From Gilliamella bombi (lineage in GTDB: Bacteria; Pseudomonadota; Gammaproteobacteria; Enterobacterales; Orbaceae): a stretch of DNA of 42,875 nt. Below, piece after piece: positions 16,730 to 32,283 of the stretch. Each line of letters begins with the position of its first letter. Within the stretch, counting starts at the first letter, position 1. The DNA is taken from positions 2,049-44,923 of the forward strand of contig NZ_FMWS01000065.1 in assembly GCF_900103255.1 (NCBI RefSeq), in the 5' to 3' direction. Made by a program: the position numbers and the translations under genes. The notes below the pieces were generated by a model. The model was given only the letters and a program-made list of their open reading frames with translations. It did not search any database and was not told the DNA's origin.

Positions 16730-17194
16730 ATGTTTAAATATTGGAAATTATTCTTTCGTCAAAAAAATGCAAGTGTTTCGATAGAGTTTGCAATTGTTTT
16801 TCCTTATTTAATTGTTCTATTTTTATTTGTACTAGAATTTAGTCGAATTATGATTATTGGTTCGGCTTTAGATCTGGTGACTACAGAAATAACTAGAAAA
16901 ACGGCGATTTCTCAAAATGCAAACTATAATCAACAGTTACAAGAATTGATTAATTCTGAAGTACCATTATGGCCCTATATAGCAGATCCACAAAAATTTG
17001 AAATAACTGTGAAATATTGTAGAAAAATTGATGAGGCAATTAATAATAATTGCCTAAATACTCCAGTTAGCGATGCTCCAATACTATTATTTGAATTGAA
17101 GTATGACTACAATGCTATATTCTCCAAGCTGTTTGGTCGTATACTTGACAGCTCTCTGGAAAAGAAGACTATTGTTTACCGTGAGTTTTATTAA
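16730..17194 (+). CDS. tadE: TadE-like pseudopilin
   Basis: A 154-residue TadE-family protein. A basic leader (RQKNA) is followed by SVSIEFAIVFPYLIVLFLFVLEF, the hydrophobic class III-like segment with Glu at position +5 after the presumed cleavage. TadV should process it as it does Flp. The rest is a small periplasmic domain with a CRKIDEAINNNC loop, where two Cys may be disulfide-bonded. Minor pilin role from the family. Confidence 0.85.
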   Translation: MFKYWKLFFRQKNASVSIEFAIVFPYLIVLFLFVLEFSRIMIIGSALDLVTTEITRKTAISQNANYNQQLQELINSEVPLWPYIADPQKFEITVKYCRKIDEAINNNCLNTPVSDAPILLFELKYDYNAIFSKLFGRILDSSLEKKTIVYREFY

Positions 17195-17226
17195 AATAAT
17201 TGATAATTAAAGGAATGAAGTAGCAA

Positions 17227-17997
17227 ATGAGATATTCTGATAATTTTTTTCGTAATAGAGACGGTATAATTTCAATAGAGTTTGCAGCATGTTTTTGTTT
17301 GTTTTCACTTTTAGTATTTATTATCTATGATACTTACAGTAGCATCATGTTACAGAATAGATTAGAGCGGGCAAATTATACTGTAGCTTCTATTTTTCGT
17401 GAAAGATCAGCAATTTATCCAGTTACAAATGGCTCGACAGTTCAAGAAGTCGCTGCATTATGTGCTGATCCTAACTCCTGTTTTAATTCTCATGAGTTAT
17501 TTGATGATACTCAAGTGGAGCAACTCAGCCAGTTAGCAAGCTCATTACTAAATGGACGTAAAGTTACTTTAAGAGTTGATAGTTTATTTATATTTCAAGA
17601 TGTTACTAACCCCAAAAGCTTGGCTCATGCGCAATTTGTTAATCTAAGCACTAGTTCTTGCTCCTCTGGTGTATGTAATGATGGTAGTATTGAGAACTAT
17701 TTTACTTCTTTACCTAGTATGACTGATGATTTAGATAACTCACTTACTGACTATTCAAAACTTGTTCCGTATGTTGAACGAACAGCTGATCCCACAACAG
17801 GGTTGACAGGGCGTTGGATTCCCTTATATCGAGTTAGTATGTGTATAGTTAACGAAGAAAGCCTTTATTTAAAATGGTTTAATTCAAGCAGAAAAGTTAC
17901 TGATACTTTACCAAATTTATGTAGCAATATTGTAGCGTTATCACGTTGTAATGATATTTCAAGCTCTGATGGAAATTGCCCAATTTATTATCGGTAA
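17227..17997 (+). CDS. tadF: TadF-like pseudopilin
   Basis: A 256-residue TadE/TadF family member. The leader NRDG is followed by IISIEFAACFCLFSLLVFIIYDTYSSI, again with SIEFA. The periplasmic part has several Cys residues (CADPNSC; SSCSSGVC; LCSN; SRCND; GNCP) likely in disulfides. It lies 32 bases after tadE with a ribosome site AAGGA. Confidence 0.82.
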   Translation: MRYSDNFFRNRDGIISIEFAACFCLFSLLVFIIYDTYSSIMLQNRLERANYTVASIFRERSAIYPVTNGSTVQEVAALCADPNSCFNSHELFDDTQVEQLSQLASSLLNGRKVTLRVDSLFIFQDVTNPKSLAHAQFVNLSTSSCSSGVCNDGSIENYFTSLPSMTDDLDNSLTDYSKLVPYVERTADPTTGLTGRWIPLYRVSMCIVNEESLYLKWFNSSRKVTDTLPNLCSNIVALSRCNDISSSDGNCPIYYR

Positions 17998-18021
17998 TCA
18001 ACACATTTTTGAGAGTATTAT

Positions 18022-20013
18022 ATGAGCCATAGCAATAATAGACATAACAAAATTAATTATAAGAAATCTTTTTTTAAGTGTTCTTCAGGGAGTGCTGCTA
18101 TAAGTTTCGCCTTAATGTTTCCTGCAATGCTAATTTGTATGTTAGTTTCAATAAATCATACTCAAACGATGCGAGACCGAGCAAGGATCTCTGAAGCTAC
18201 TAACGAAGCTTCGTTGGCAGTTATCGCATTAAACAATAAAAATGCCGATAAAACAGCAATTGAACAAAATCGCAAAATGGCATTGAACTATATTAATTAT
18301 TTTGTTTATCAAAAAATTAGTGATGATTTAGTAGAAGATGCCGATGCCTCTATTAATATAGAATATAATAAAAACACTAAGGTATATAGTATTGCCTATA
18401 AACAGAAAGTTGATTCCTTAACAAGTAGTAAAGACAAAGGAAAAGTTGGTGAGTTAAATCAATCTATGATTGTTAGCAATAAAACTGAAAGTTATGGTAA
18501 TACAAAGAAATTTGATAGATATGACTCATTTGATATTGCTTTTATTAGTGATTTTTCAGGTTCAGCAACATGCCAATATGGCGATACAGGTTGTAATGAC
18601 TACTCTCCTCAAAATGGAAATAGTGATCAGCAACGTCTTCAATATATGAAACAAGCAATAACAGATATAATTAATAAGCTTAAAGAATCCTCAGGAATTA
18701 AATTTGCATTGATTCCTTATGATATCGGTGTACCTGTTAAGTTGGAAGCTAAAAACCTAGCTGGTGGAGAAAGTTACGGTTGTTCGGTTATGTACAAAAT
18801 GCAGGGGCCTTATTATGATAAAATCAATTATAATTTTTGGGCAAATAAAAACATTGCATATTCTAAATGGATTAATTATTCAAAATCTTATAACGAATCA
18901 AAGTTACCGCCGACATATTTCATAGAAAATTTACCTTATATGTATTTCCCTCATAAGAACGATGTTACTTATTATTTAGATTATTTTAATTATCGTTATT
19001 ATTCACAAATAATTGGGCCAGCGAAAGGATTGTATGATGATGATGCCTTAGTGCGTGAAAGATTGTGCAAGCCAGTTCTTAATGATGAGGGAGCAGCAAG
19101 GTATCGGTGTGGTGAAGATAATTGGGATTATCCATTGCGTCATGAACATAAGAAAACTATTAATGAACAATATGGCGCTATTGTCCAACTATATCATTTC
19201 ATGTTTTCGGGGGAATATTCGGACGTGCATTATTCATTTGCTAACACTAAAACAGTTGATGTACAAGGTACAATTGATGAATTGTTCAGTGGCATAAACA
19301 CTAATATAATAACATTTAATCGACCTATTTCGCCTACTGTTGGTGATTTTTCGCCATTTTTGGGAATGTGCCAATCGCCTTTATATAATAATGACATAAT
19401 GAGCGAAAAGGTGATTAATTTGCCAACTAACCATCAAAGATTTTTAGAAGCATCAAAACATATTAGAACATTTAAGGCATTCCCTCATTTAGTTCCTTTT
19501 AGTAAAGACAGAAATCATAATTCGACTTTACTTAGTTATATTGGTGAGAGTGAGCAATCTTGGCAACCAGGTGGAGGAACAGACACTATAACCGCCTTGT
19601 TAAGGACAGTTCCTGTAATGGCAAATGGATCCGCTAATAATAAAATGATGATTATTATTACAGATGGTAAAGATGATGCTGGAGCCGATATTCTTAGAGA
19701 TGATTTTTTGGATAAAGGTGTTTGCCAAGCAATAACGACTGGATTAACTTCAGCAGATAATGAGAATAAAGGCTATATTGAGAAGGCGGCTAATACAGCA
19801 ACGATCCACTATATAAAACTTGATCCAAAAGCAGCCAATTTGACAACTGATGAACAATATGAAGAAGTATATGGAAAATGGTTTACTAAATGTATGAATG
19901 GTAATAGAGAATATTTACACGAGGCTCAAGATTATCAGAGTCTATTTGATACTATGGCAAAAATTATTCAGACGGAAACAGGTAATTTTGTTAACAGAGA
20001 TGAATCTAATTAA
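18022..20013 (+). CDS. tadG: TadG-like vWA pilus protein
   Basis: A 663-residue protein with an N-terminal pilin-like segment (GSAAISFALMFPAMLICMLV, around residues 24-43) and a von Willebrand A domain. The metal site motif DxSxS is seen as DFSGS with Asp177, Ser179 and Ser181; the later ITDGKDD may be the second metal-ligand strand. A long Tyr/Asn-rich insertion (about 240-400) separates the halves of the fold. TadG is thought to anchor or regulate the pilus in the envelope. Length is in the upper range of the family. Confidence 0.85.
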   Translation: MSHSNNRHNKINYKKSFFKCSSGSAAISFALMFPAMLICMLVSINHTQTMRDRARISEATNEASLAVIALNNKNADKTAIEQNRKMALNYINYFVYQKISDDLVEDADASINIEYNKNTKVYSIAYKQKVDSLTSSKDKGKVGELNQSMIVSNKTESYGNTKKFDRYDSFDIAFISDFSGSATCQYGDTGCNDYSPQNGNSDQQRLQYMKQAITDIINKLKESSGIKFALIPYDIGVPVKLEAKNLAGGESYGCSVMYKMQGPYYDKINYNFWANKNIAYSKWINYSKSYNESKLPPTYFIENLPYMYFPHKNDVTYYLDYFNYRYYSQIIGPAKGLYDDDALVRERLCKPVLNDEGAARYRCGEDNWDYPLRHEHKKTINEQYGAIVQLYHFMFSGEYSDVHYSFANTKTVDVQGTIDELFSGINTNIITFNRPISPTVGDFSPFLGMCQSPLYNNDIMSEKVINLPTNHQRFLEASKHIRTFKAFPHLVPFSKDRNHNSTLLSYIGESEQSWQPGGGTDTITALLRTVPVMANGSANNKMMIIITDGKDDAGADILRDDFLDKGVCQAITTGLTSADNENKGYIEKAANTATIHYIKLDPKAANLTTDEQYEEVYGKWFTKCMNGNREYLHEAQDYQSLFDTMAKIIQTETGNFVNRDESN

Positions 20014-20036
20014 TAATGAAGTAGGGATTATTTAAA

Positions 20037-21222
20037 ATGAAATTAATTAGAGTAATGGTATTATTTGCATCATGTTTATGCCTTTCATTATTTGCAAACG
20101 AAAGAAAAAGAAGTGATGCTGTCATGTTGACGATAAAATCATTTATAAAAATTCCTACTTCAACTAACTCTATTGATACAGGAATTACGATAGAAAATGG
20201 AAATATTTGGCTTACAGGATACAGCGATTCATGGATATTGGGCAGTGTTTTGTTGGGGATGTGGTCATTAAAAGCCTCATTATAGAGTAGAATTTTTGTC
20301 GATGAAGGGATTTATATTACGCAAATAACTGCAGGAGCATATCATCAATCATGGTGATGTTTGGTCATGAAGCGACAATCACGCTTGGCAAGCCTCAGCT
20401 ATTAAGGTTGAAAATATTGGGGGTTATCAAACTATACCAGCCCTAGTTTTGGTAGCTAAAGATGTCATCATGACAGAAGCTGGAGAATATACTTCTTTTG
20501 TTTTAACCCGGAGTGGAGAGGTTTATGCTTGGGGGAGATGATGAATCAAATCAATATCGGTTTAGATATAGTGTACAGGAACTACCAGTACATGTTTACC
20601 AGACGTACCACCCAGTGCAAATTACTAATCTTCCCCCTTATATTAGTGGTGAGGATATATAACTATTAGGGGAGGAAACCGTTACACTGCTTTTTTAACT
20701 TCGGAAGGCGAGGTGTACGCTATGGGAGATGCTAATCATCTCGGTATTGAATTTGGTTATTTGGATGGTACACTATATGAACCTGGATTGTATCTTGATG
20801 ATGTAAATGGAAAGAGCTATAAAGTAAGTGTCCCTATTCCCCAGTTTGTTATGGATGATGTTAATACGCTTTATTGTCGATTTGGGGGATGTGTTGCGGT
20901 CATTAATGATAATGAATTATTTACGTGGGGAGTAACACTTGCTGCAGGTGTAGAAAATGGTTCCCTTTGGCAGATAATGTATGGTTATAAACCCTTGAAA
21001 AGGGAAGTTATTGGTAATTTGACTAAATTTGATGGTGGTAAAGAGAGTATAATCTATTGGAATGATGAAGGGAAAGCTTTTGGCGTTGGATGGAATAATC
21101 ATTTTAAATATGATCCTAAAGGTAAAGCTCCTCTTGTCGTTAATTGGCCAGGAGTAGAATTAAAATTTGTTACAGATGAGATGAAAAAAGTTTATGGTGA
21201 AGATTTTGTTCCAGGACAGTGA
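20037..21222 (+). pseudogene. RCC1-repeat secreted protein, multiply frameshifted
   Basis: An ATG at 20037 with a signal-like start (LIRVMVLFASCLCLSLFANE) opens a frame that stops at 20285. Continuing in alternating frames, RCC1-type pieces are clear: GNIWLTGYSDS (frame 1), then ITQITAGAYHQS, then after an in-frame TGA EAGEYTSFVLTRSGEVYAWG, then another shift GDDESNQYRF, and finally RYTAFLTSEGEVYAMGDANHLGI, which stays open to 21222. These are the GxxxTxxLTxxGxVYxWG repeats of the RCC1 beta-propeller. At least five shifts or stops break it. Neighbouring tad genes have clean frames. It lies between tadG and tadV, so it once may have been an exported pilus-associated propeller. Confidence 0.85.
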
Positions 21223-21227
21223 TACTA

Positions 21228-21677
21228 ATGGTTAATCAAGAATTAATTAATGATATTATTATTCTAGCTATTTGGGCATGTTTGTTATTTTCATGTTATA
21301 CGGATTTAAAATATCGAACTATCTCAAATAAAATTGTTATAATAATATTCATTTTAGTTATTTTGAATTTTGCCCTTGGCAAAGGGCATCTAGATTATAT
21401 TGCATCAGCTATATTTTTAATTTGCGGTCTATTCATGTTTTATTGCCGACTTGTTGGTGCTGGAGATATAAAATTAATTACTGTTCTTTTGATCTCTATT
21501 CCAATAAATAGTGTGCCGTTTTTCTTAGTCGTTATTACCTTTTTGGGGTTACCAATGGCAATTATTGCAATAATATACAGATCCTTCAAAAAAAATTCTG
21601 TTACATTGCCTTATGGGCTTGCCATTAGTGGTAGCTATTTTTTAACATCAATAACCTTATTTGAGGTTATACTGTAA
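21228..21677 (+). CDS. tadV: TadV/CpaA prepilin peptidase
   Basis: A 149-residue A24-family aspartic peptidase in the inner membrane. It has about six hydrophobic helices; the two catalytic Asp are in YTDLKYRTISN and in GAGDIKL (the GxGD motif). It lacks the methyltransferase domain of PilD, as Tad peptidases do. It should cut Flp, TadE and TadF. I take ATG 21228 as start because AGGA lies at 21213-21216; an upstream GTG at 21219 overlaps the preceding stop and is too close to that site. Its position last in the locus is uncommon; it is usually next to flp. Confidence 0.93.
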   Translation: MVNQELINDIIILAIWACLLFSCYTDLKYRTISNKIVIIIFILVILNFALGKGHLDYIASAIFLICGLFMFYCRLVGAGDIKLITVLLISIPINSVPFFLVVITFLGLPMAIIAIIYRSFKKNSVTLPYGLAISGSYFLTSITLFEVIL

Positions 21678-21734: not shown

Positions 21735-21774
21735 GTTTCCCATCCTCAATAAGGCGGGTGGGAAACTCTTTTTT
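21735..21774 (+). terminator. intrinsic terminator of the tad locus
   Basis: GTTTCCCATCC (21735-21745) pairs with GGGTGGGAAAC (21756-21766) in an 11-bp stem (one G-U), then CTCTTTTTT. It is 58 bases after tadV and marks the end of the locus. The rest of 21775-21986 has no gene; it should hold the promoter of the next operon, which I cannot pick with confidence. Confidence 0.92.
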
Positions 21775-21986: not shown

Positions 21987-23222
21987 ATGGAAAATCATAG
22001 CAGTAGTACTGTTGCTTTTGTTAAAAATCGGCGTGCTTCATTAATCAGTGCTATTTTTTTAATGGCAACATCGGCAATTGGCCCAGGCTTCATTACTCAA
22101 ACCGCTACCTTCACCGTTACGCTTGGTACTGCTTTTGGCTTTGGTATTTTAGCCTCTATTATTATCGATTTTGTTGTTCAGCAAAATATTTGGCGAATTG
22201 TAGCATTAACCAAAATGAACTCTTCAGATATATCTAATGCAACCATTCCATTTAGTGGTTATTTGCTAGCGGTGTTAATTATATTTGGTGGATTAGTATT
22301 TAATATTGGTAATATAGCTGGTGCAGGTTTAGGTTTAAATGCATTGGTTGGCCTTGATCCTAAATGGGGAGGGGCAATTAGTGCACTTTTAGCGGTTTAC
22401 ATATTTTCTTCCCGTAAAGCGAGTCATTTTATAGATCGTTTGATGATTGGTTTTGGTTTGCTAATGATTGTTTTAACGTTATTTGTGGTGTTTGCATCGC
22501 ACCCTCCAGTTGGTGAAGCGTTAAAAGAAACCGTGTTTCCGAGCGATATCAATTTTGCTTCAATCACAACTATTGTTGGTGGAACCGTTGGCGGTTATAT
22601 TTCTTACGCAGGCGCTCACCGTTTACTTGATAAAGGTATGGTTGGTGTAGAGCATATTGATTATGTTTCAGGCGCAGCCACAAAAGGAATTGTCGTTGTT
22701 GGTTTAATGCGTTACATTTTATTTTTAGCGATTTTAGGTGTGGTTGCAAGTGGTGTGACAATTGATATTTCAAGTTATGCTGCTAACCCTGCATCGCAAG
22801 CATTTCAAGCGGCTTTGGGAGAGTTTGGATTGCGCCTTTTTGGTTTGATTTTATGGGCAGCAGCCATCACTAGTGTTATTGGGGCAGCTTATACTTCAAT
22901 GACGTTTATTACTCCGTTTAAACGTACTATTACAGACAGACAACGTCAGTTTGCTACCATTATTTTTATTGTTGTTTCGCTTGCAATTTATTTAATTATG
23001 GGGACTGCACCAGTATCATTATTAGTCTTTGCTGGTGGTTTTAATGGTTTAGTTTTACCGCTTGGGTTAACTATTTTTGTTTATATTGGCTGGAGACGTG
23101 CTGATCTTATGTCTGGATATCATTATCCAAGATGGTTATTACTTTCAGGCGTGGTTGTGTGCGCAATTACTTGGTATATGGGCATAATGTCGGTCGCGAC
23201 TATTTTTAACTATCTAAAATAG
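21987..23222 (+). CDS. NRAMP-related transporter of the pxp (5-oxoproline) operon
   Basis: A 411-residue membrane protein with about 11 hydrophobic segments, related to the NRAMP metal transporter family and to YcsG of the Bacillus subtilis ycsF/kip locus. The usual first-helix metal site DPGN is replaced by GPGF (residues 32-35), and the sixth-helix MPH motif is replaced by GGYISYAGAHR (about 202-212). It is therefore unlikely to carry divalent metals as NRAMP does. Ten bases before pxpA on the same strand, it probably imports the substrate of the pxp enzymes or a related amide. AGAGGA is nine bases before the ATG. The substrate is an inference from context. Confidence 0.8.
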   Translation: MENHSSSTVAFVKNRRASLISAIFLMATSAIGPGFITQTATFTVTLGTAFGFGILASIIIDFVVQQNIWRIVALTKMNSSDISNATIPFSGYLLAVLIIFGGLVFNIGNIAGAGLGLNALVGLDPKWGGAISALLAVYIFSSRKASHFIDRLMIGFGLLMIVLTLFVVFASHPPVGEALKETVFPSDINFASITTIVGGTVGGYISYAGAHRLLDKGMVGVEHIDYVSGAATKGIVVVGLMRYILFLAILGVVASGVTIDISSYAANPASQAFQAALGEFGLRLFGLILWAAAITSVIGAAYTSMTFITPFKRTITDRQRQFATIIFIVVSLAIYLIMGTAPVSLLVFAGGFNGLVLPLGLTIFVYIGWRRADLMSGYHYPRWLLLSGVVVCAITWYMGIMSVATIFNYLK

Positions 23223-23231
23223 AAGGGCAAT

Positions 23232-24014
23232 ATGATAATCACCAAATGTATTGATTTAAATAGTGACCTTGGCGAGAGCTTTGGTCAATGGCAAATGGGT
23301 AATGATGAAGCAATGCTAAATGTTGTTAGCAGTGCCAATGTCGCTTGTGGATTTCATGCAGGTTCGCCTGCTGGCATTTTAAAAACGTTGAATGCCGCTA
23401 AAGCCAATAATGTCCAAGTGGGTGCTCATGTTGGTTACCCTGATTTAGTGGGATTTGGTCGTCGTAATATGGATGTTGCAACTGATGAGTTAACCGCTGA
23501 TGTGATTTATCAAATTGGCGCACTTAAAGGATTAGCCACATCAATCGGTACCAAAGTGAGTTACGTTAAACCACATGGCGCATTATATAACACTATTGCA
23601 CACGATAAACGTCAAGCAATGGCGGTGATTGATGCGCTTTGTCTTGTTGATCCCACGCTTATTTTGGTTGCGCTTGCTGGCTCAAAACTGATTGAATGGG
23701 CTAAAGAAAAGGGTTTAAACGTAGTTGCTGAGGCTTTTGCTGATAGAGCTTATCATGCTGATGGTACTTTAGTTTCTCGTAAAGAGGTTGGAGCGGTATT
23801 GCATGATCCTGATTTAGTTGCCGAACGCATGTTGCAATTGGTTAATGATGGTGGCGTGATGTCTATCGAAGGGCAATTTGTGCGTATTGAGGCAGGATCA
23901 ATTTGTGTCCATGGCGATAGTGCAGGTGCTTTAGGCATGGCACAAAAAGTACGACAAAAACTACAACAAAATGGCATTCATATTGCCTCGTTTGCTAAAA
24001 GTAATAATAACTAA
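23232..24014 (+). CDS. pxpA: 5-oxoprolinase subunit A, LamB/YcsF family
   Basis: A 260-residue LamB/YcsF protein, the A subunit of the prokaryotic ATP-dependent 5-oxoprolinase that opens pyroglutamate to glutamate. Characteristic motifs: [11 protein letters not shown] at the start, [37 protein letters not shown] and CVHGD near the end. AGAAGGGC lies just before the ATG. It is full length. A gap of 157 bases with a 7-bp hairpin (ACCAAGT 24077-24083 with ACTTGGT 24093-24099) separates it from the B-C fusion. Confidence 0.93.
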
Positions 24015-24171
24015 ATTAGTTAACGTTTTGAAAAAGTTAATTAAATTAATAAAAAAATATGATTAGACAACACGTTACCAAGTGGGCTATAAACTTGGTC
24101 TTTAATATGACAAAACAATGTAAAATATGTATTGTTAGTGATTGGATGTTGATCATATTTCGAGGTACTTA

Positions 24172-25779
24172 ATGCGATTTTTACCCGTTAATATCGATGC
24201 GTTTATCGTAGAATTAAACAGCCTTGAGCAAACCATGGCGCTTACTGATGTGCTTCAAGGTGTTATTGCTAATTGGCATATCAATGAAATAATTCCAGCG
24301 GCACGAACCCTATTAATCCGTTATAACCCCATTGTAACCAATGCTAATATACTTGCTGAGCAGATTGCTCAATTAGATATTTCGGCAAGCGTTATGCAAT
24401 CAGGCGAACAGGTAACAATACCTGTTCGCTATAATGGTGAAGATTTACCTCAAGTGGCAGATTATCTTGGCATAACGGTTGCCGAAGTCATTGCAAGGCA
24501 CACTGATAATGAGTATCAAGTGGCTTTTTGTGGCTTTGCTCCTGGATTTGCTTATATGGTATCTAAAACGGCTCAGCTTAATGTGCCACGTCGAAGTTCG
24601 CCACGAGTCCGCATTCCAGCAGGATCGGTTGCTTTGGCAGGGGAATTTAGTAGTGTTTACCCACAAGCAAGCCCTGGTGGTTGGCAATTGATTGGCATTA
24701 CAGATACGGCAGTTTGGGATATTTATCGTGATGAGCCAGCGCTGTTCAAACCTGGTACTCGGGTTAATTTTATTGATGTGAGCCAATCGAAAACAACTTA
24801 TCATTTACCTGCTCATTTATCAGCAGCTAAAAAACAAGATGATCTTGTTGAGCAACAAGATATAACAGTATTAACGACAGGGTTGCAAACATTGTTTCAA
24901 GACAATGGCCGAATTGGGCAGGCGGCGTTAGGCATTTCTGAATCGGGAGCGATGGATAAAAACGCATTACACAGTGCCAACCGCGTGTTAGGTAACTCAA
25001 TTAATGAACCAGCGTTAGAAATTACCCAAGGTGGTTTTAGCGCCCAAATAAACAGACCAATGTTAGTTGCTGTGACGGGCTCTATATGTGAGATCACAAT
25101 AACCACCATCCAAGGTGAAACCTATACTTCTCCTATGTATCGGCCAATTCAATTAGAAGCAGGTGATATTATCCGTTTAGGTAATGTAAAATGTGGCGTT
25201 CGTAGTTATTTTGCTGTGCGTGGCGGTTTTCAAGTAACACCTATTTTAACCAGCTGTGCTTTTGATACGCTTGCACAAGTTGGGCCCTTACCACTAAAAT
25301 CGGGTCAAATGTTGGCGATTAAGCAAGCAAAAACGTTAAATCCAGTATCATTATCAGAAACTCCTATGATTAATTACCCAACTAGTGATGATATAGTAGT
25401 GTTAGATATTGTGCTTGGACCACGTACCGATTGGTTTACTCAGCAATCGATAGCGCTTCTTACTTCACAGTTGTGGTCGGTTACTCCAGCTTCTAACCGT
25501 ATTGGCTTGCGTTTATCTGGCAAGGAACCGTTAATTCGTGAAAAACAACAAGAATTACCTAGTGAAGGTACCTGTATTGGAGCAATACAAATACCAGCTA
25601 ATGGACAACCTGTATTATTTTTGAATGATCACCCTTTAACAGGAGGTTATCCTGTTATTGGCGCAGTATGTAATTATCATTTAGATTTAGCAGGTCAAAT
25701 TCCAGTCAATGCTAAAATAAAGTTTAATCCTATAGGGATGTTTAAAGAATTTGAAGGGAGTGATGTTGATCATGTCTGA
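24172..25779 (+). CDS. pxpBC: fused 5-oxoprolinase subunits B and C (KipI-KipA, AHS1-AHS2)
   Basis: A 535-residue fusion. Residues 1-about 230 are the AHS1/KipI (PxpB) domain with GFAPGFAYM, PRRSSPRVRIPAGSVALAG and SPGGWQLIG. Residues about 240-535 are the AHS2/KipA (PxpC) domain with LQTLFQDNGRIG, ISESGAMD, NEPALEITQGG and, near the end, NDHPLTGGYP. Both are homologous to the carboxyltransferase half of urea carboxylase. In E. coli and B. subtilis they are separate genes. ATG 24172 has GAGG six bases upstream; an in-frame TTG at 24142 lies before that site. Its stop overlaps the next start by eight bases, indicating coupling to the biotin enzyme. Confidence 0.92.
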   Translation: MRFLPVNIDAFIVELNSLEQTMALTDVLQGVIANWHINEIIPAARTLLIRYNPIVTNANILAEQIAQLDISASVMQSGEQVTIPVRYNGEDLPQVADYLGITVAEVIARHTDNEYQVAFCGFAPGFAYMVSKTAQLNVPRRSSPRVRIPAGSVALAGEFSSVYPQASPGGWQLIGITDTAVWDIYRDEPALFKPGTRVNFIDVSQSKTTYHLPAHLSAAKKQDDLVEQQDITVLTTGLQTLFQDNGRIGQAALGISESGAMDKNALHSANRVLGNSINEPALEITQGGFSAQINRPMLVAVTGSICEITITTIQGETYTSPMYRPIQLEAGDIIRLGNVKCGVRSYFAVRGGFQVTPILTSCAFDTLAQVGPLPLKSGQMLAIKQAKTLNPVSLSETPMINYPTSDDIVVLDIVLGPRTDWFTQQSIALLTSQLWSVTPASNRIGLRLSGKEPLIREKQQELPSEGTCIGAIQIPANGQPVLFLNDHPLTGGYPVIGAVCNYHLDLAGQIPVNAKIKFNPIGMFKEFEGSDVDHV

Positions 25780-27520
25780 AAATAATAAAAATATAACACA
25801 TAAAGTATTGATAGCTAATCGAGGTGAAATTGCTGTACGTATTATTCGCGCTTGCCGTGATATAGGCTTGTTATCTGTTGCAATTTATGCCGATGCTGAT
25901 ATTGATGCACTTCATGTACAAATGGCTGATGAAGCTTATGGATTAACAGGCAATGTACCTAGCGATACATATTTAGATATTGATAAAATTATCACAATAG
26001 CTAAAAAATCAGGAGCCACCATGGTTCATCCAGGTTATGGTTTTTTATCTGAACGTGTTGAATTTGCTAGAGCAGTACAAGATGCAGACTTAATTTGGGT
26101 AGGCCCTACCCCTGAAACAATTGAAATATTGGGTGATAAAGTCAAAGCAAGACAGCTTGCGTTGCAAGTGGGAGCTCCTTTGGTTGTTGGTACAAAAGAG
26201 CCTGTAAAAGATGCCAAAGAGGTTATTGAGTTTGCGCATGCCCATGGTTTACCAATTGCTATTAAAGCCGCATTTGGTGGCGGTGGTCGAGGTTTAAAAG
26301 TAGCCTGGCAAATGGACGAAGTAGAAGAACTTTATCATTCCGCAGTTCGTGAAGCTACAACTGCTTTTGGGCGAGGTGAGTGTTTTATTGAACAATTTTT
26401 GCATAATCCTCGGCATGTTGAAGCACAAGTTATTGCTGATACATTAGGTAATATTGTTGTCGTTGGTACACGTGACTGTTCATTACAACGACGTAATCAA
26501 AAATTAATTGAAGAGTCTCCTGCACCTTTTATAACAGATCAATTAGTACAGCAAATTATTCAATCTTCGATTGATATTTGCGCTAAAGCAAACTATGTAG
26601 GCGTAGGGACAGTTGAGTTTTTACTTAGCCAAGATGGTAAGTTATCTTTTTTAGAAGTTAATACGAGATTACAAGTTGAACACCCAGTAACAGAAGAAAC
26701 TACAGGCGTCGATCTTGTTATTGAGCAACTGCGTATTGCCCAAGGTTTACCTCTGAGTATAGATGAAACACCTGCACCTAGAGCTCATGCCATTGAATTT
26801 CGTATCAATGCTGAAGACACAGCTAACGGTTTTTTACCTGTAGCTGGTACTATTACACGTTTTGATGTACCAACCGGTCCTGGTGTACGCATAGACAGTG
26901 GGGTGATGGCTGGTTCAACAATTCCAGCAACGTTTGATTCCCTTATGGCAAAATTGATTATTGTTGGTAATAATCGACAACATGCCATTGCTAGAGCTCG
27001 CCGTGCTTTGGCTGAGTTTTCTATTGAAGGGGTAGCTAGTGTGTTGCCATTTGCTCGTGCGGTTATTGAACATTCTGATTTTTGTGATGATTTTAAATTA
27101 CATACACGTTGGATTGAAACTGAATTTACTACAACAATAGCACCAGCCAAAAGGCAAATACCACAAAAAGAAGCAGCGTTGACACGCACATTTATTGAGA
27201 TTGACGGTAAACGTTGTAAACTCGGTTTACCTGCACAACTCCTTGCAGGGTTATCCTTGCAAACGGAAGCTAATTTAGATACATCCTCAAGCGTGAAAGA
27301 AGAATTATCTGAATTGATTGTCCAGTCACCTGTTTCTGGTAGTCTTTTTAAATGGGTGATCAATGATAATCAAAGCGTAAACGCAGGCGATGTCATTGCT
27401 ATTATGGAAGCCATGAAAATGGAAGTTCAAGTTATTGCACATCGAAATGGTGTGCTAAAACAAATACTCAAAGAAGGCAATTATGTTAATGCAGGATCAC
27501 CTGTTGCAGAAATCATTTAG
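25772..27520 (+). CDS. biotin carboxylase fused to biotin carboxyl carrier domain
   Basis: A 582-residue protein: residues about 10-455 are an AccC-type biotin carboxylase (KVLIANRGEIAVRIIRACR; ATP-grasp glycine loop AAFGGGGRGLKVA; FLEVNTRLQVEHPVTE; RINAED), then a Pro/Lys-rich linker and a biotinyl domain ending the chain, with biotin-accepting Lys549 in the EAMKM motif and the two flanking Gly turns. It carboxylates biotin with ATP and bicarbonate. ATG 25772 with GGGAG eleven bases upstream is preferred to in-frame ATG 25763 and TTG 25751. It is not the housekeeping AccB/AccC pair (fused, no accD nearby). Its translation is overlapped with the carboxyltransferase-like PxpBC, so the natural reading is a biotin-dependent carboxylase acting with PxpBC, by analogy with urea carboxylase. 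Acceptor unknown. Confidence 0.9.
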   Translation: MSENNKNITHKVLIANRGEIAVRIIRACRDIGLLSVAIYADADIDALHVQMADEAYGLTGNVPSDTYLDIDKIITIAKKSGATMVHPGYGFLSERVEFARAVQDADLIWVGPTPETIEILGDKVKARQLALQVGAPLVVGTKEPVKDAKEVIEFAHAHGLPIAIKAAFGGGGRGLKVAWQMDEVEELYHSAVREATTAFGRGECFIEQFLHNPRHVEAQVIADTLGNIVVVGTRDCSLQRRNQKLIEESPAPFITDQLVQQIIQSSIDICAKANYVGVGTVEFLLSQDGKLSFLEVNTRLQVEHPVTEETTGVDLVIEQLRIAQGLPLSIDETPAPRAHAIEFRINAEDTANGFLPVAGTITRFDVPTGPGVRIDSGVMAGSTIPATFDSLMAKLIIVGNNRQHAIARARRALAEFSIEGVASVLPFARAVIEHSDFCDDFKLHTRWIETEFTTTIAPAKRQIPQKEAALTRTFIEIDGKRCKLGLPAQLLAGLSLQTEANLDTSSSVKEELSELIVQSPVSGSLFKWVINDNQSVNAGDVIAIMEAMKMEVQVIAHRNGVLKQILKEGNYVNAGSPVAEII

Positions 27521-27653: not shown

Positions 27654-29003
27654 TTGAAGTTTTCTCAGCAATCAAAACTCACTAATGGCGCATTAGCCTT
27701 AGCGTTATCGCCAGCCTTAACACCAGATGGAATTATTGACAACCCTCAATTTTTTGCTGGTTATGCTCTTTACCCACAAATTCTTGCTAGATCTTTACTG
27801 GTTCTAGCTGATATTACTGCGACCCGATATTTTAAACCAGTGCCGGTAGCTTTTCGTGATCCTATTTTATCTGCACAAGGGAATCAATTAAGAGCAGAGG
27901 TTTTTTCTGCCTGCAATAGTGTTTATGCTCGTTTAGATTTGTTACAACAAGGGTTTGATGGACAAATTTTACGAGGCACAACCAATGTAGATATTGGTAT
28001 TAGCTTAAGGCAAGCGCTAACTCAGGTTAATTATAAAGATAAACTTTATCTCAATATTGGCAATCAAGGTTTGGCAACGCACCATATCCAAAAACAAGAT
28101 GAAGATGTAATTGGAATAAAGGCCATTATTGAGCGCCCTGTTGCAATGCCAGATAGGTGGATTCGAGCACTTGGTAATGTAGCTGAAATTCATACCAAAA
28201 TGGTCGCTGTTTTTACGGTAACGGGAATACAAGCACAAACCTTTATTGCAGGATTGCCAACCGTGACTAGTAAACATCAATCAAGCTGGCTAGTGCCATC
28301 TAATACTGGTATTAAATTGATGGCTCAAGGCGGTCTCGATAGTGTGTATATTTCTGGGCTACATCGGTTAAGTGCACTTAAGCGATTAACGACCAATATT
28401 AAGCGTTTAACTTTTTATCAGCTAGCAAGTGGCGAACAAGGACCCTGCATGGTTGAAGTTGAACTCGACGGTGCAAGACTTACTTTGAGCTTAACTGCAC
28501 AGCCATGGCAAGGCTATTCTGGCGAAGGTGCCTTACTTGAGCTGCTTGCACCAAAACAGCAATTACAAAATGCTCAACTTGTTCAATCTATTTTACAATT
28601 TGATTCGCTGATCGATCTGACTCAGCTAGCGATAAAAACAGGTTTAGATACTCAGCGCATTAATAGTTCGCTGGCGTATCTAGCTGTTTCAGGTAAGTTG
28701 GGTTTTGATGTACACCAGAATGGCTATTTTCATCGTCAATTGCCTGAAGATCCTAATCGACTTATCAAAGATAATCCGCGTTTAAAATCGGCCTATAAAT
28801 TGATTGAATGTATTGATCGGGTTGATGAAAACACATGGATGGTTCACTCGAATAACGAAGACTATCGTGTCCGTTTTGTTAGGCAGAATAGTAAAATGAC
28901 ATCACAATGTACTTGCTCATGGTATCTGAATCATCAACTCAAAAAAGGACCATGTAAACATATTTTAGCAGTACAAATTAAGGAAAATATTTATGAATGC
29001 TAA
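27654..29003 (+). CDS. SWIM zinc-finger protein
   Basis: A 449-residue protein that starts at TTG 27654, nine bases after AGGA. The last 35 residues hold a SWIM zinc finger, Cys419-x-Cys421-x12-Cys434-x-His436, predicted to bind DNA or protein. The remainder is not a fold I can name; the middle has a Trp-containing beta region (about 260-330) and a winged-helix-like segment (about 318-365, LIDLTQLAIKTGLDTQRINSSL). The last ten bases overlap the next gene's start, so the two are translationally coupled. This resembles YehQ of the E. coli yehLMPQ set, where SWIM, repeat, MoxR ATPase and VWA proteins cluster; the MoxR and VWA genes are absent from this window. Confidence 0.72.
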   Translation: MKFSQQSKLTNGALALALSPALTPDGIIDNPQFFAGYALYPQILARSLLVLADITATRYFKPVPVAFRDPILSAQGNQLRAEVFSACNSVYARLDLLQQGFDGQILRGTTNVDIGISLRQALTQVNYKDKLYLNIGNQGLATHHIQKQDEDVIGIKAIIERPVAMPDRWIRALGNVAEIHTKMVAVFTVTGIQAQTFIAGLPTVTSKHQSSWLVPSNTGIKLMAQGGLDSVYISGLHRLSALKRLTTNIKRLTFYQLASGEQGPCMVEVELDGARLTLSLTAQPWQGYSGEGALLELLAPKQQLQNAQLVQSILQFDSLIDLTQLAIKTGLDTQRINSSLAYLAVSGKLGFDVHQNGYFHRQLPEDPNRLIKDNPRLKSAYKLIECIDRVDENTWMVHSNNEDYRVRFVRQNSKMTSQCTCSWYLNHQLKKGPCKHILAVQIKENIYEC

Positions 29004-32000
29004 CTTAGCGAAAGCCGAAGCGATTTTTACTTCTTTGAATTGGAACAATGTCACAGCTGACAATATTTTACAACAACCGCTAGGTAGCAAAGAGCAGCAA
29101 AAGATTGCACTTTTAGGATTAAAAAATGGCAAATGGGGTGACTATGTCAAAGTTGGTAACGCTTTTCAATGGCAAGATTATGTTAAGTGTAATAAAGCAT
29201 ATTTAGCTTTGTACGCCATTCGGATTGGGGTATCAGTGAGCCGAGCGTTAAAACTTGCTCATTATACTTATTCATCTTTGTTATTGCCGGTTATTATTGA
29301 ACGAGGTGAAAATTACGCACAAAATTTTGTGCAACAAGCATCTGCACCAACAGATCTTGCTGTGCAGTTGGTTGATCGTTTAAATTTGGTTATTCCTAAA
29401 AATCAGAATTATATCGGCGGTTGGACGTTGTATGCGGCGGTTGCTATGCGTGGTGATGATGTTGTAAAGCATTTTTCAGTTGCTACTCATGATGCAGATG
29501 TTGTCAACCCTTTTTACGATAAAATTCCTCCAAATATAGCTCAATGTCAGCGTCGATTTATCGAACATATTCATATTGCTATAGCGATAAATACACCTGC
29601 TACACGATCATTTATCGAGGTGTTTTGCTTGGGGGTAACATTAGGTTGGCTTGACCGAGAGCAAGCAAAAGAGTTACTTTTTTTAGCTTTAGATATCGCT
29701 ATTCGTCCTATAGATCGTAAAGTATGGCTAGATACACTTTATGATTTAGGTATTACCGATGCTGAATTGTGCCAGCGAGTACCTGCTTTAATTCCATTAC
29801 TAGCCATGGGTGAATCTGCAATAATTAATCGATTAGCACCTGTTTTAATTCCCTTTGTTGATGATGAATTATTAATCGAAGTGATGACGGCATGTTTATC
29901 ATCTAAAATAAAATCGGTCAAAAAATTAGTGTTAAAGATAGCCCTAAATCGCAAAGCGCCCCAAAATACTGATTTGTTTATGCCTTTGTTAAACCTATTA
30001 CTTGACCAAACTGATGAATCAATTGTGGCTTTAACTAGCAAGCTAATTACACAGTGGCATCTTGATGATCATACCGTACAATCTAATTCCTCCGAATTAC
30101 AACAACTTTGGCAACCAACACCGCCACTTTGGCAATTGCCGCCTTTTGAATTAGAGCCTATTTCCCCTGATGTATTAACTGAGTTAGCCTCTGAATTAGT
30201 AAAAAGAAACATATCTGGTCATGATAGTGTGACGGAAAGATTTTTAGCTGTAGCTAATATTATTGCTTATCACGATCCTCAAGCAGCAAAAGCGAGTTTA
30301 GCGGGTATAAAATTACGGGTTGATCAGCTTCTTGGTTTTCTATTTTATTGGCGTAAAGGCGAAGAGATTCCGTATCATAAATATTTGTCTGATTTATTAA
30401 CAGCACGCGATTATATTGTTTGTAAAAATTTAGGCAAAATACCTTGTTTACTGTCGACACCAAGCATGAGTGATCTTTCAATAACAGTGGATGATCTTAG
30501 TCAACGATTAGCGATTTATCAACAGTTGAAAATTGATGCATTAGAGGCGGATCTGTTTTTAGCCTTGACTCGTCTTGATGTTTCGACAAAAACATCATCA
30601 ACGATAGAAAAACTCAAGAAGTTAAATGTTGCAGTCGTTTTGCAATCAGGACAAAAAATGCCAATTGATGCAGGCTCTTTAGTATTACAGTATCTGGACG
30701 ATCCATTAATCGAACCTAAATTAGCGTTAAATACTTATATTGAAGACGTACTGTCTTTACCACAATCATTAAATTATTTTCCTAAACGTATTGGAAATAA
30801 CGGGTTTACAAAAATTCTTGCTATTTTCCCGTTATGGAACGATAGTGCAATACCGTCAGATATTGATTGGGCTACATATTACCATCAAGGTTTTGAGTTC
30901 CAGCAAATTGTTAACAGGCGTTCTCCTTTTGATTCACGTTCTGCAATGGCATTGTTAGCTATGCAACGCGCTAATTCGCCTTATGTGGCTAGCAATATGG
31001 CTCAAGCAGTAAACGATGCATGGCAAAGAGGTTTGCTTATTCCAGGTGTGGCGGATATTTTGTTACTGGAGCGATTTAGTCAGGTTCCTTGTCGTATAGC
31101 TAGTTTGGTGTCAGTATTAACCGATATTGCAAAACAAGGCATTCTTTCGGTGGTTTGGCCTATTTTGGATCAATTAATTATCGCATCATGTAAAGCACCA
31201 AGACTGTTATCTGGCACGCTTGAAACTGTTGATGCGATAGCTGAGTTTTTACCAGAAGTTCAATATGCTGTCGATCAAGGCATAGCCGATGCCAATCAAT
31301 TGCAATTACTTGGCATCAGAATGTTAGCCAGTAAAGAAGGTAGTGCTAATGCGATTAAGAAAGCAAAAGCCATAGTTGAAAAACTACCTAAAATCGCCCC
31401 TTTAAAACAAGACGTATCGATGCGAGCTCCTGATGATTTTGACCAAGTATGGTCAAAACCGCAAAAGGCTAAAGTTGTGCCTGAAGATAATGTTTCAATT
31501 ACTATTAGTAAGCCTGTAATAGATCAATCATCACGATTTTCTAAAGCATTGGCTAAATCACTAATGTTTACTTTAAAACTACCCAATGTGTCTAATCAAG
31601 TTTTCCACATAGTAAAAAATGATTGGTATTATGATTTAGAATACGAATTCCAATGCGAAGCTTACCCTCCATTATCAAAAGATCAACAAGTTATACCTAA
31701 TTTTCAATCAAGAGTTTGGTTACATTGGTGTATTAACAAACAGTTACTTGATGTTGAGAAAACACGTAATTGGCAAGAAAATAACGATGGGCCATTATCA
31801 AGTATAGATAATCTGATTTTTTCAAAATCGTTAGTGACAGTGATTATCGGATTGTTGGCTCAAGACAGTAATACTTATAAAGCAAATTTTATTTTTGAAA
31901 AAAATGTTAAAAAAGGAATCATTGATGCAGATACCATGCGTAAAGCTATTATGTTGTTTCTCGATTATCCTGATTTAAGCCCAGCTAAATTAATTCGATT

Positions 32001-32283
32001 ACTAGAAAAAAAGCCAAGTTTATTGCCAATATTTTGTCCAGTATTAATTGAATGCATTAAGTTTGTTGGAAATCTAGTAAAACAAGGTGAAAAAATACCT
32101 GCTTGGATCAATCGGATTTTAGATATGTCATTAACCTATGCCCCTTATTTGAAAGAGGCAACTAGGCGCGGTTATCTAACTGAACTTGATTCTCAATGGC
32201 AAGGATTAGCGGATATTGCCCAAGCAAAAGCAAAATCAGTGGCAGTAAACAAAGCAAAACAATTACTTGAATTACTTATGTAA
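28993..32283 (+). CDS. large helical-repeat protein partnered with SWIM protein (unknown function)
   Basis: A 1096-residue protein made mostly of amphipathic helices, as in HEAT/Armadillo-like repeat proteins (for example VARLAP/ LIPLLAMGESAIINRL and LLNLLLDQTDESIVALTSKLI around residues 270-350). It has no signal peptide, no membrane segment and no catalytic motif that I can see. A Trp- and Pro-rich patch (LWQPTPPLWQLPPFE, about 374-388) and a second helical block (about 750-1090) follow. It overlaps the SWIM gene by ten bases, and they surely act together. The arrangement resembles the YehM-type or DUF6493-type partners of SWIM proteins, but I cannot assign a family with certainty. Confidence 0.6.
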   Translation: MNANLAKAEAIFTSLNWNNVTADNILQQPLGSKEQQKIALLGLKNGKWGDYVKVGNAFQWQDYVKCNKAYLALYAIRIGVSVSRALKLAHYTYSSLLLPVIIERGENYAQNFVQQASAPTDLAVQLVDRLNLVIPKNQNYIGGWTLYAAVAMRGDDVVKHFSVATHDADVVNPFYDKIPPNIAQCQRRFIEHIHIAIAINTPATRSFIEVFCLGVTLGWLDREQAKELLFLALDIAIRPIDRKVWLDTLYDLGITDAELCQRVPALIPLLAMGESAIINRLAPVLIPFVDDELLIEVMTACLSSKIKSVKKLVLKIALNRKAPQNTDLFMPLLNLLLDQTDESIVALTSKLITQWHLDDHTVQSNSSELQQLWQPTPPLWQLPPFELEPISPDVLTELASELVKRNISGHDSVTERFLAVANIIAYHDPQAAKASLAGIKLRVDQLLGFLFYWRKGEEIPYHKYLSDLLTARDYIVCKNLGKIPCLLSTPSMSDLSITVDDLSQRLAIYQQLKIDALEADLFLALTRLDVSTKTSSTIEKLKKLNVAVVLQSGQKMPIDAGSLVLQYLDDPLIEPKLALNTYIEDVLSLPQSLNYFPKRIGNNGFTKILAIFPLWNDSAIPSDIDWATYYHQGFEFQQIVNRRSPFDSRSAMALLAMQRANSPYVASNMAQAVNDAWQRGLLIPGVADILLLERFSQVPCRIASLVSVLTDIAKQGILSVVWPILDQLIIASCKAPRLLSGTLETVDAIAEFLPEVQYAVDQGIADANQLQLLGIRMLASKEGSANAIKKAKAIVEKLPKIAPLKQDVSMRAPDDFDQVWSKPQKAKVVPEDNVSITISKPVIDQSSRFSKALAKSLMFTLKLPNVSNQVFHIVKNDWYYDLEYEFQCEAYPPLSKDQQVIPNFQSRVWLHWCINKQLLDVEKTRNWQENNDGPLSSIDNLIFSKSLVTVIIGLLAQDSNTYKANFIFEKNVKKGIIDADTMRKAIMLFLDYPDLSPAKLIRLLEKKPSLLPIFCPVLIECIKFVGNLVKQGEKIPAWINRILDMSLTYAPYLKEATRRGYLTELDSQWQGLADIAQAKAKSVAVNKAKQLLELLM

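What the first reader, a model, noticed from the sequence alone, without database searches (positions are those of the whole stretch)
21987..27520. Biotin carboxylase-carrier fusion coupled to fused 5-oxoprolinase B-C subunits and PxpA
PxpB/PxpC are homologues of the AHS1/AHS2 carboxyltransferase part of urea carboxylase. Here a BC-BCCP fusion overlaps the PxpBC fusion by eight bases and follows PxpA, giving all domain types of a urea-amidolyase-like enzyme, with PxpA in the place of the amidase. This suggests an N-carboxylated lactam (5-oxoproline or analogue) as intermediate, an enzyme not obvious from the ATP-dependent model of PxpABC. Seen: domains, overlap, biotin Lys. Inferred: chemistry and substrate.
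Basis: partly seen in the sequence, partly recalled or inferred. Interest (0 to 1): 0.7.

Follow-up and report, generated by a model that had tools for sequence, protein, structure and literature searches.

The report
Biotin-linked version of bacterial 5-oxoprolinase
A bacterium of the bee-gut type carries a gene cassette in which the 5-oxoprolinase proteins are tied to their own biotin-carboxylating partner, suggesting that it opens a damaged-glutamate ring by first attaching carbon dioxide rather than phosphate; a matching operon known in Acinetobacter was read as a urea enzyme.

Summary
In detail: an NRAMP-like transporter, PxpA, a PxpB-PxpC fusion and a biotin carboxylase-carrier (BC-BCCP) fusion lie in line at 21987-27520, the last two overlapping by 8 bases. 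It is no chance neighbourhood. In a sample of 299 Pseudomonadota genomes, 13 of 13 PxpBC loci of this subfamily adjoin a BC-BCCP, 0 of 87 other PxpB loci do in the stretches fetched, and all 13 close BC-BCCPs found sit there. 67 of 80 named relatives repeat the cassette. Housekeeping accB-accC lie elsewhere; no amidase-family gene was found. A Mycobacterium smegmatis relative in the same clade is in a solved entry titled as bound to an acyl-CoA carboxylase complex, with AccA3 in it (9yx5). The cassette matches the Acinetobacter mum operon, published as a urea carboxylase. I favour a biotin-dependent 5-oxoprolinase: carboxybiotin activates the lactam on PxpBC and PxpA opens it. Coupling to biotin is well supported; substrate and carboxyl-lactam chemistry are inferred. 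Against a urea-carboxylase-like mechanism, the catalytic Lys1605 is Arg, as in ordinary PxpB. Novelty: a variant of PxpABC, and a known operon re-read.

The parts
21987..23222 (+). NRAMP-family transporter; relatives next to pxp genes are called PxpT/YcsG/MumT (5-oxoproline or Mn import)
   Evidence: Pfam Nramp E 7e-20; an NRAMP gene lies within the fetched stretch of 33 of 80 named loci
23232..24014 (+). PxpA (LamB/YcsF), the lactam-opening subunit
   Evidence: Pfam E 6e-101; NCBIfam NF003814 above its cut-off; 34 highly conserved positions shared by cassette and BC-less PxpA
24172..25779 (+). PxpB-PxpC fusion, urea-carboxylase-type carboxyltransferase pair; ORF open from TTG 24142, ATG 24172 preferred
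   Evidence: Pfam CT_C_D E 4e-57 and CT_A_B E 2e-78; start; AF2 model pLDDT 91.7, closest folds 3mml, 3oep, 5dud, 5i8i
24589..24591 (+). Arg140 codon, in the place of Lys1605, the likely carboxyltransfer general base of K. lactis urea amidolyase
25772..27520 (+). biotin carboxylase-BCCP fusion, 582 aa; overlaps the PxpBC gene by 8 bases (25772-25779)
   Evidence: Pfam Biotin_carb_N, ATP-binding, Biotin_carb_C, Biotin_lipoyl; start read
27416..27418 (+). codon of the biotin-acceptor-type lysine (EAMKM), Lys549
   Evidence: motif recognised from recall

Best explanation
A self-contained, biotin-dependent branch of the prokaryotic 5-oxoprolinase. The BC part carboxylates the biotin of its own BCCP with ATP and bicarbonate; the BCCP docks on the PxpBC carboxyltransferase pair, which passes the carboxyl group to the ring amide of 5-oxoproline (or a very close lactam); PxpA hydrolyses the activated ring and CO2 leaves, giving glutamate. 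The NRAMP-like protein imports the substrate or Mn2+. Shown: genes, domains, conserved linkage, subfamily status, separate housekeeping AccB/AccC, and a solved entry whose title puts a relative on a carboxylase complex. Inferred: that the BCCP serves PxpBC catalytically, the substrate, and the carboxyl-lactam intermediate.
For: Two-way genomic linkage: of 100 non-urea-carboxylase PF02682 loci from 299 Pseudomonadota genomes, 13 of 13 in this subfamily adjoin a BC-BCCP and 0 of 87 others do; in the same sample the 13 BC-BCCP matches of 60% identity or more are exactly those 13, and the next matches listed are at most 49% identical and cover the BC part only (at most 4 candidates per genome were scored, and the list is cut). 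67 of 80 named loci repeat fused PxpBC + BC-BCCP + PxpA. Gene overlap. PxpBC and BC each fall in a clade of SH-aLRT 100, apart from the other PxpBC, the urea-carboxylase BC and the genome's own AccC. M. smegmatis MSMEG_0436, in the PxpBC clade, is in 9yx5, titled long chain acyl-CoA carboxylase complex with MSMEG_0435-MSMEG_0436 bound, and AccA3 (BC-BCCP) is in the same entry. Only two PF01039 carboxyltransferase genes in the genome, which match opposite ends of the profile, as AccA and AccD would (recalled). Biotin-ligase-family gene present. Substrate: 34 highly conserved PxpA positions are the same in cassette and BC-less sets; a D-glutamate cyclase family gene in the stretch of 33 of 80 named loci and 6 of 13 sampled cassettes; a PxpT/YcsG-type transporter is needed for 5-oxoproline use in C. 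glutamicum (PMC13274462).
Against: No activity is measured. Lys1605 of urea carboxylase is Arg in all 93 cassette-clade PxpB and in 75 of 76 BC-less PxpB, so the known carboxyltransfer base is missing. BC-less PxpABC hydrolyses 5-oxoproline with ATP (Niehaus 2017, recalled; not held) and is assumed to phosphorylate it (PMC13274462), so PxpBC need not use biotin. The window and its genome lack the D-glutamate cyclase family, which also occurs at 11 of 76 BC-less loci. NRAMP kin import Mn in B. subtilis and A. baumannii. In A. baumannii urea use depended on mumC. Of the 80 named loci 10 have no BC in the stretch and 3 have a BC without a BCCP found. PxpB-PxpC fusion alone is not diagnostic: TTHA0988 is fused and lies outside the clade. 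Pyruvate-type carboxyltransferases were not searched as other partners. The contacts of MSMEG_0435-0436 in 9yx5 were not seen by me.
Confidence: 0.62

Rival explanations
1. A split urea carboxylase: BC-BCCP and PxpBC make allophanate from urea, as proposed for MumC/MumH of A. baumannii.
For: Same fold and domains as K. lactis urea carboxylase; urea use as sole nitrogen source depended on mumC (PMC5050338).
Against: No PF01425 amidase was found in the genome to split allophanate (the same search rings in 12 of 14 control genomes). Urea-carboxylase Lys1605 is Arg here and Lys in 20 of 20 urea carboxylases examined. PxpA sits where the amidase would be. The mumH deletion still used urea, although MumH, by gene order the PxpBC carboxyltransferase, would be needed to carboxylate urea. 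The NCBIfam urea_carbox cut-off is not reached.
Confidence: 0.1
2. PxpABC works as the ordinary ATP-only enzyme and BC-BCCP is a separate activity, or a passenger, that shares the operon.
For: 76 of 100 PxpB loci in the sample have no BC in the stretch fetched, and enzymes of that kind work without one (Niehaus 2017, recalled).
Against: Two-way linkage and gene overlap; 9 and 16 cassette-specific positions in PxpB and PxpC against 4 in PxpA (PxpA is also the more conserved protein); only two PF01039 carboxyltransferase genes, AccA- and AccD-like; 9yx5.
Confidence: 0.13
3. The same biotin-dependent chemistry on another lactam or cyclic amide (2-pyrrolidone, hydantoin, or D-5-oxoproline only).
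For: Aspergillus lamA and lamB serve lactam catabolism (PMC8016842); LamB is the PxpA relative (PMC3412718) and LamA is, as recalled only, urea-carboxylase-like. D-glutamate cyclase neighbours would point to the D form.
Against: 34 highly conserved PxpA positions are shared with ordinary 5-oxoprolinase-type PxpA; 4 others differ.
Confidence: 0.15

Closest known systems
PxpABC prokaryotic 5-oxoprolinase (B. subtilis, E. coli, C. glutamicum pxpTABC)
   Same: PxpA, PxpB and PxpC domains, an NRAMP-family transporter beside them, shared conserved PxpA positions
   Different: PxpB and PxpC fused and in a separate clade; own BC-BCCP; scores under the NCBIfam equivalog cut-offs for PxpB and PxpC
Acinetobacter baumannii mumTLUHC operon
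   Same: NRAMP, PxpA, D-glutamate cyclase family, PxpBC, BC-BCCP in that order in Acinetobacter sp. NIPH 2100, L188, the order of mumT-L-U-H-C
   Different: The window lacks the gene in mumU's place. The published reading is urea carboxylase; mumR was not found outside Acinetobacter by its authors. A. baumannii itself was not aligned here
Urea carboxylase / urea amidolyase
   Same: BC + carboxyltransferase of the CT_A_B/CT_C_D type + BCCP
   Different: Two polypeptides, no amidase found, Arg for Lys1605, BC in a different clade
Mycobacterial AccA3 and the 9yx5 entry
   Same: Closest solved BC-BCCP by E-value, and a PxpBC-clade pair in one entry with it
   Different: AccA3 is shared by several acyl-CoA carboxylases (PMC11001197); here the BC-BCCP occurs only with the cassette in the sample
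Aspergillus lamA/lamB
   Same: Lactam catabolism genes; LamB is a PxpA relative
   Different: Fungal, sequences not examined here; LamA domain make-up recalled only

Membership tests
PxpABC 5-oxoprolinase | PxpA, PxpB and PxpC domains encoded together | tested here: met
PxpABC 5-oxoprolinase | PxpB and PxpC above NCBIfam equivalog cut-offs | tested here: not met
   PxpC NF045499 174.5 of 500 bits; PxpB TIGR00370 134 of 145.55; the broad domain model TIGR00724 is met (248.7 of 230.2): related, not the canonical subunits
PxpABC 5-oxoprolinase | ATP-dependent 5-oxoproline hydrolysis | not testable with these tools
   needs an assay
Urea carboxylase | BC, CT_A_B, CT_C_D and BCCP domains | tested here: met
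   on two polypeptides
Urea carboxylase | catalytic Lys1605 in the carboxyltransferase | tested here: not met
   Arg in the window and in 93 of 93 cassette-clade sequences; Lys in 20 of 20 urea carboxylases
Urea carboxylase | NCBIfam TIGR02712 cut-off | tested here: not met
   496.8 (BC-BCCP) and 146.1 (PxpBC) against 1303.85 bits
Urea amidolyase system | amidase-family allophanate hydrolase in the genome | tested here: not met
   no PF01425 match at E 0.001
Acetyl-CoA carboxylase BC (AccC) | NCBIfam AccC cut-offs | tested here: not met
   NF006367 543.2 of 597 and TIGR00514 523.7 of 626.5 bits; separate accC- and accB-type genes elsewhere
mum-type cassette | NRAMP, PxpA, PxpBC, BC-BCCP in line | tested here: met
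   the gene in mumU's place is absent
Biotin-dependent enzyme | BCCP actually biotinylated | not testable with these tools
   motif EAMKM and a biotin-ligase-family gene are present

The most novel reading that the evidence does not exclude
Carboxyl activation may be the original chemistry of the whole PxpABC family: PxpBC proteins without a neighbouring BC would borrow carboxybiotin from the cell's acyl-CoA carboxylase (AccBC or AccA3), so that ordinary 5-oxoprolinase is a hidden biotin enzyme. Hints: BC genes accompany PxpBC-type loci in at least three separate forms; the 10 cassette-type loci without a BC nearby are all actinobacterial; and one actinobacterial relative is in a solved entry with an AccA3-bearing complex.
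Probability: 0.1. Interest if true: 0.85.

Novelty: new variant of a known kind. Interest (0 to 1): 0.6.

Why it matters
How ATP energy opens 5-oxoproline in PxpABC is stated in the literature as an assumption (phosphorylation). A subfamily welded to its own biotin carboxylase would give a second, testable activation route, a lactam counterpart of urea amidolyase. It would also re-read the mum operon of Acinetobacter, published as urea metabolism, and bear on an open question of Lombard and Moreira 2011 (PMC3199775): whether urea-carboxylase-type carboxyltransferases work with other biotin carboxylases.

Tried and rejected
A triple PxpA-PxpB-PxpC fusion (suspected from 815- and 821-aa open frames) was an artefact of stop-to-stop frames and was dropped. 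A single-sequence fold was useless (pLDDT 33) and was replaced by an alignment-based one. Paper searches that showed no biotin-dependent 5-oxoprolinase: 20 of 42 papers listed; 10 of 10; 20 of 25; no paper; 15 of 36 listed. Not held: Niehaus 2017 (the DOI tried was from memory and differs from the one printed), Katz and Hynes 1989 (42), a urea carboxylase structure paper (DOI from memory, 43), Lee 2025 (73); what I say of these is recalled or second-hand. The structure paper behind 9yx5 was not found. A mirror-tree comparison was not pursued; Bartonella and Acinetobacter group in the PxpBC tree but not in the BC tree, which tells against strict co-inheritance in that one case. Promoter-like sites were no more than in shuffles (21 against 21.2) and terminator-like ones 7 against 4.5. 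In the second look at folds the related entries stood above the rest; absence of other families there proves nothing.
Full report
What is there. Reading 21987-27520 on the + strand: an NRAMP-family transporter, PxpA, a PxpB-PxpC fusion and a BC-BCCP fusion. The likely starts are ATG 24172 for PxpBC and ATG 25772 for BC-BCCP, the second overlapping the PxpBC gene by 8 bases. In the same genus 21 of 35 genomes carry a close PxpBC (75-100%), 2 carry split, distant homologues and 12 none (3 of these 12 are under 90% complete); 9 of 9 genomes from other genera of the family have none.

Is it the cell's AccBC? No. The genome (2.6 Mb, rated 100% complete) has a second biotin carboxylase of 461 aa with a 152-aa BCCP-type protein beside it on another contig, and two PF01039 carboxyltransferase genes that match opposite ends of the profile, as AccA and AccD would (naming recalled). 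Pyruvate-type carboxyltransferases were not searched. No amidase-family gene was found, although the same search rings in 12 of 14 control genomes.

Linkage. Of 299 Pseudomonadota genomes, 103 hold PF02682. I set aside 38 rows of urea-carboxylase length and one weak row and examined the other 100 loci (99 fetched stretches of 10.6-19 kb plus the window). Thirteen belong to the window's subfamily; all 13 have a BC-BCCP next door, and 12 of the 13 have PxpB and PxpC fused (in L095 they are separate, overlapping ORFs). Of the other 87, 11 have a lone BC within the stretch and 76 none; some stretches end at contig ends. The 13 come from 12 genomes of 7 families, so they are not independent draws. 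Conversely, a search of the 299 genomes with the window's BC-BCCP gave 13 matches of 60-100% identity over nearly the whole protein, and they are exactly the 13 cassettes; the next matches listed fall to 49% or less and cover the BC part only (at most 4 candidates per genome were scored and the list is cut). In the 80 best named loci found with a cassette alignment (a biased set; more existed), 67 have fused PxpBC + BC-BCCP + PxpA, 32 of these with an NRAMP gene in the stretch. Three more have a BC with no BCCP found (L205, L206, and L219, which is cut by its contig end). Ten have no BC; by their names all ten are Actinomycetota, and one, L212, is cut by its contig end.

A separate subfamily. 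In a 93-row tree of PxpB+PxpC (quick method, SH-aLRT only) all 13 sampled cassettes, 25 named BC-linked loci, 7 actinobacterial loci without BC and M. smegmatis MSMEG_0436 (a PxpB-only row, 39% of columns filled) form one clade with support 100; the 28 BC-less loci drawn from the 76 lie outside it. So does TTHA0988 (34% of columns filled), which is also a PxpB-PxpC fusion, so fusion alone is not diagnostic. The cassette BC forms its own clade (support 100) apart from urea-carboxylase BC and from the genome's AccC. Positions fixed in 90% or more of the clade and in at most 25% of BC-less sequences number 9 in PxpB and 16 in PxpC (for example PxpC Asp135, Arg188, Trp191 and Pro258, domain numbering), against 4 in PxpA, where 34 positions are highly conserved in both sets. 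I read this as a change in the activating subunits rather than in the ring-opening one; PxpA is the more conserved protein anyway, which may explain part of it.

Known operon. Juttukonda et al. 2016 (PMC5050338; abstract, section 11 and passages seen) describe mumTLUHC of A. baumannii: NRAMP transporter, two genes without predicted function, 'allophanate hydrolase' MumH and 'urea carboxylase' MumC. Acinetobacter sp. NIPH 2100 (L188) has NRAMP, PxpA, a D-glutamate-cyclase-family gene, PxpBC and BC-BCCP in that order, so MumL, MumU, MumH and MumC are, by order, these proteins (inference; A. baumannii itself was not aligned). The words lactam and oxoproline do not occur in that paper's main text. 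It reports that use of urea as nitrogen source depended on mumC, while the mumH deletion still used urea. If MumH is the carboxyltransferase, urea carboxylation should need it; this is the weak point of the urea reading, though the mumC phenotype remains unexplained by mine.

Mechanism. Favoured: ATP + bicarbonate + BC gives carboxybiotin; PxpBC transfers the carboxyl to the lactam; PxpA opens the ring. Shown steps end at domain content, linkage and the 9yx5 title; chemistry and substrate are inferred. A result against a simple copy of urea carboxylase: Lys1605, called most likely the general base (PMC5770610, passages), aligns with Arg140 here. It is Arg in 93 of 93 cassette-clade sequences, 75 of 76 BC-less PxpB and 5 of 11 'lone BC' loci, and Lys in 20 of 20 urea carboxylases and the other 6 lone-BC loci. 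One could read Arg as the lactam type and Lys as the urea type, but 4 of the 6 Lys-bearing lone-BC loci also carry PxpA close by, so the residue does not track the presence of PxpA cleanly. The base that would act in the cassette enzyme is unnamed.

Substrate hints. The D-glutamate cyclase family gene (PF07286) lies in the stretch of 33 of 80 named loci, 6 of 13 sampled cassettes and 11 of 76 BC-less loci, but not in the window or its genome. PxpT of C. glutamicum, an NRAMP relative, is needed for growth on 5-oxoproline (PMC13274462, introduction and passages), but its relatives import Mn in B. subtilis (PMC10448178, passages) and A. baumannii. The transporter therefore does not settle the substrate.

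Verdict. As an operon it is known; as a biotin-dependent 5-oxoprolinase I saw nothing in print in the held library (three of these list only part of the papers found).

Noticed in passing
L126, L128, L129, L132 (and L124, L130): A different biotin system: lone BC, a small separate BCCP of 86-109 aa open frame (none found for L130, which ends at a contig end) and split PxpB/PxpC that keep the urea-carboxylase-type lysine. They branch between urea carboxylases and PxpBC. PxpA is close by in 4 of 6, about 6 kb off in L124, and not seen in L130.
   Followed up: partly
L044, L082, L085, L104, L106: A third kind: pxp loci with AccC-like BC and AccB-like BCCP genes nearby, the BCs grouping with the housekeeping AccC in the tree.
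   Followed up: partly
window 21735-21774: Inverted repeat GTTTCCCA...TGGGAAAC followed by a T run, just upstream of the cassette; probably the terminator of the preceding operon (read by eye; the scan does not list it).
   Followed up: no
window 16730-21677: ORFs that look like Tad/Flp pilus genes (TadE/TadG-like, prepilin-peptidase-like) upstream of the cassette; judged from the translations by recall.
   Followed up: no
window 27654-32283: A 449-aa SWIM zinc-finger protein and a 1096-aa protein with a weak DUF7824 match, below its cut-off, overlapping each other downstream of the cassette.
   Followed up: no
G321 C24:48216-49823 and G038 C55:30780-32516: In-frame stop codons reported inside a close PxpBC match (G321) and a cassette BC-BCCP match (G038); possibly match ends or broken copies.
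   Followed up: no
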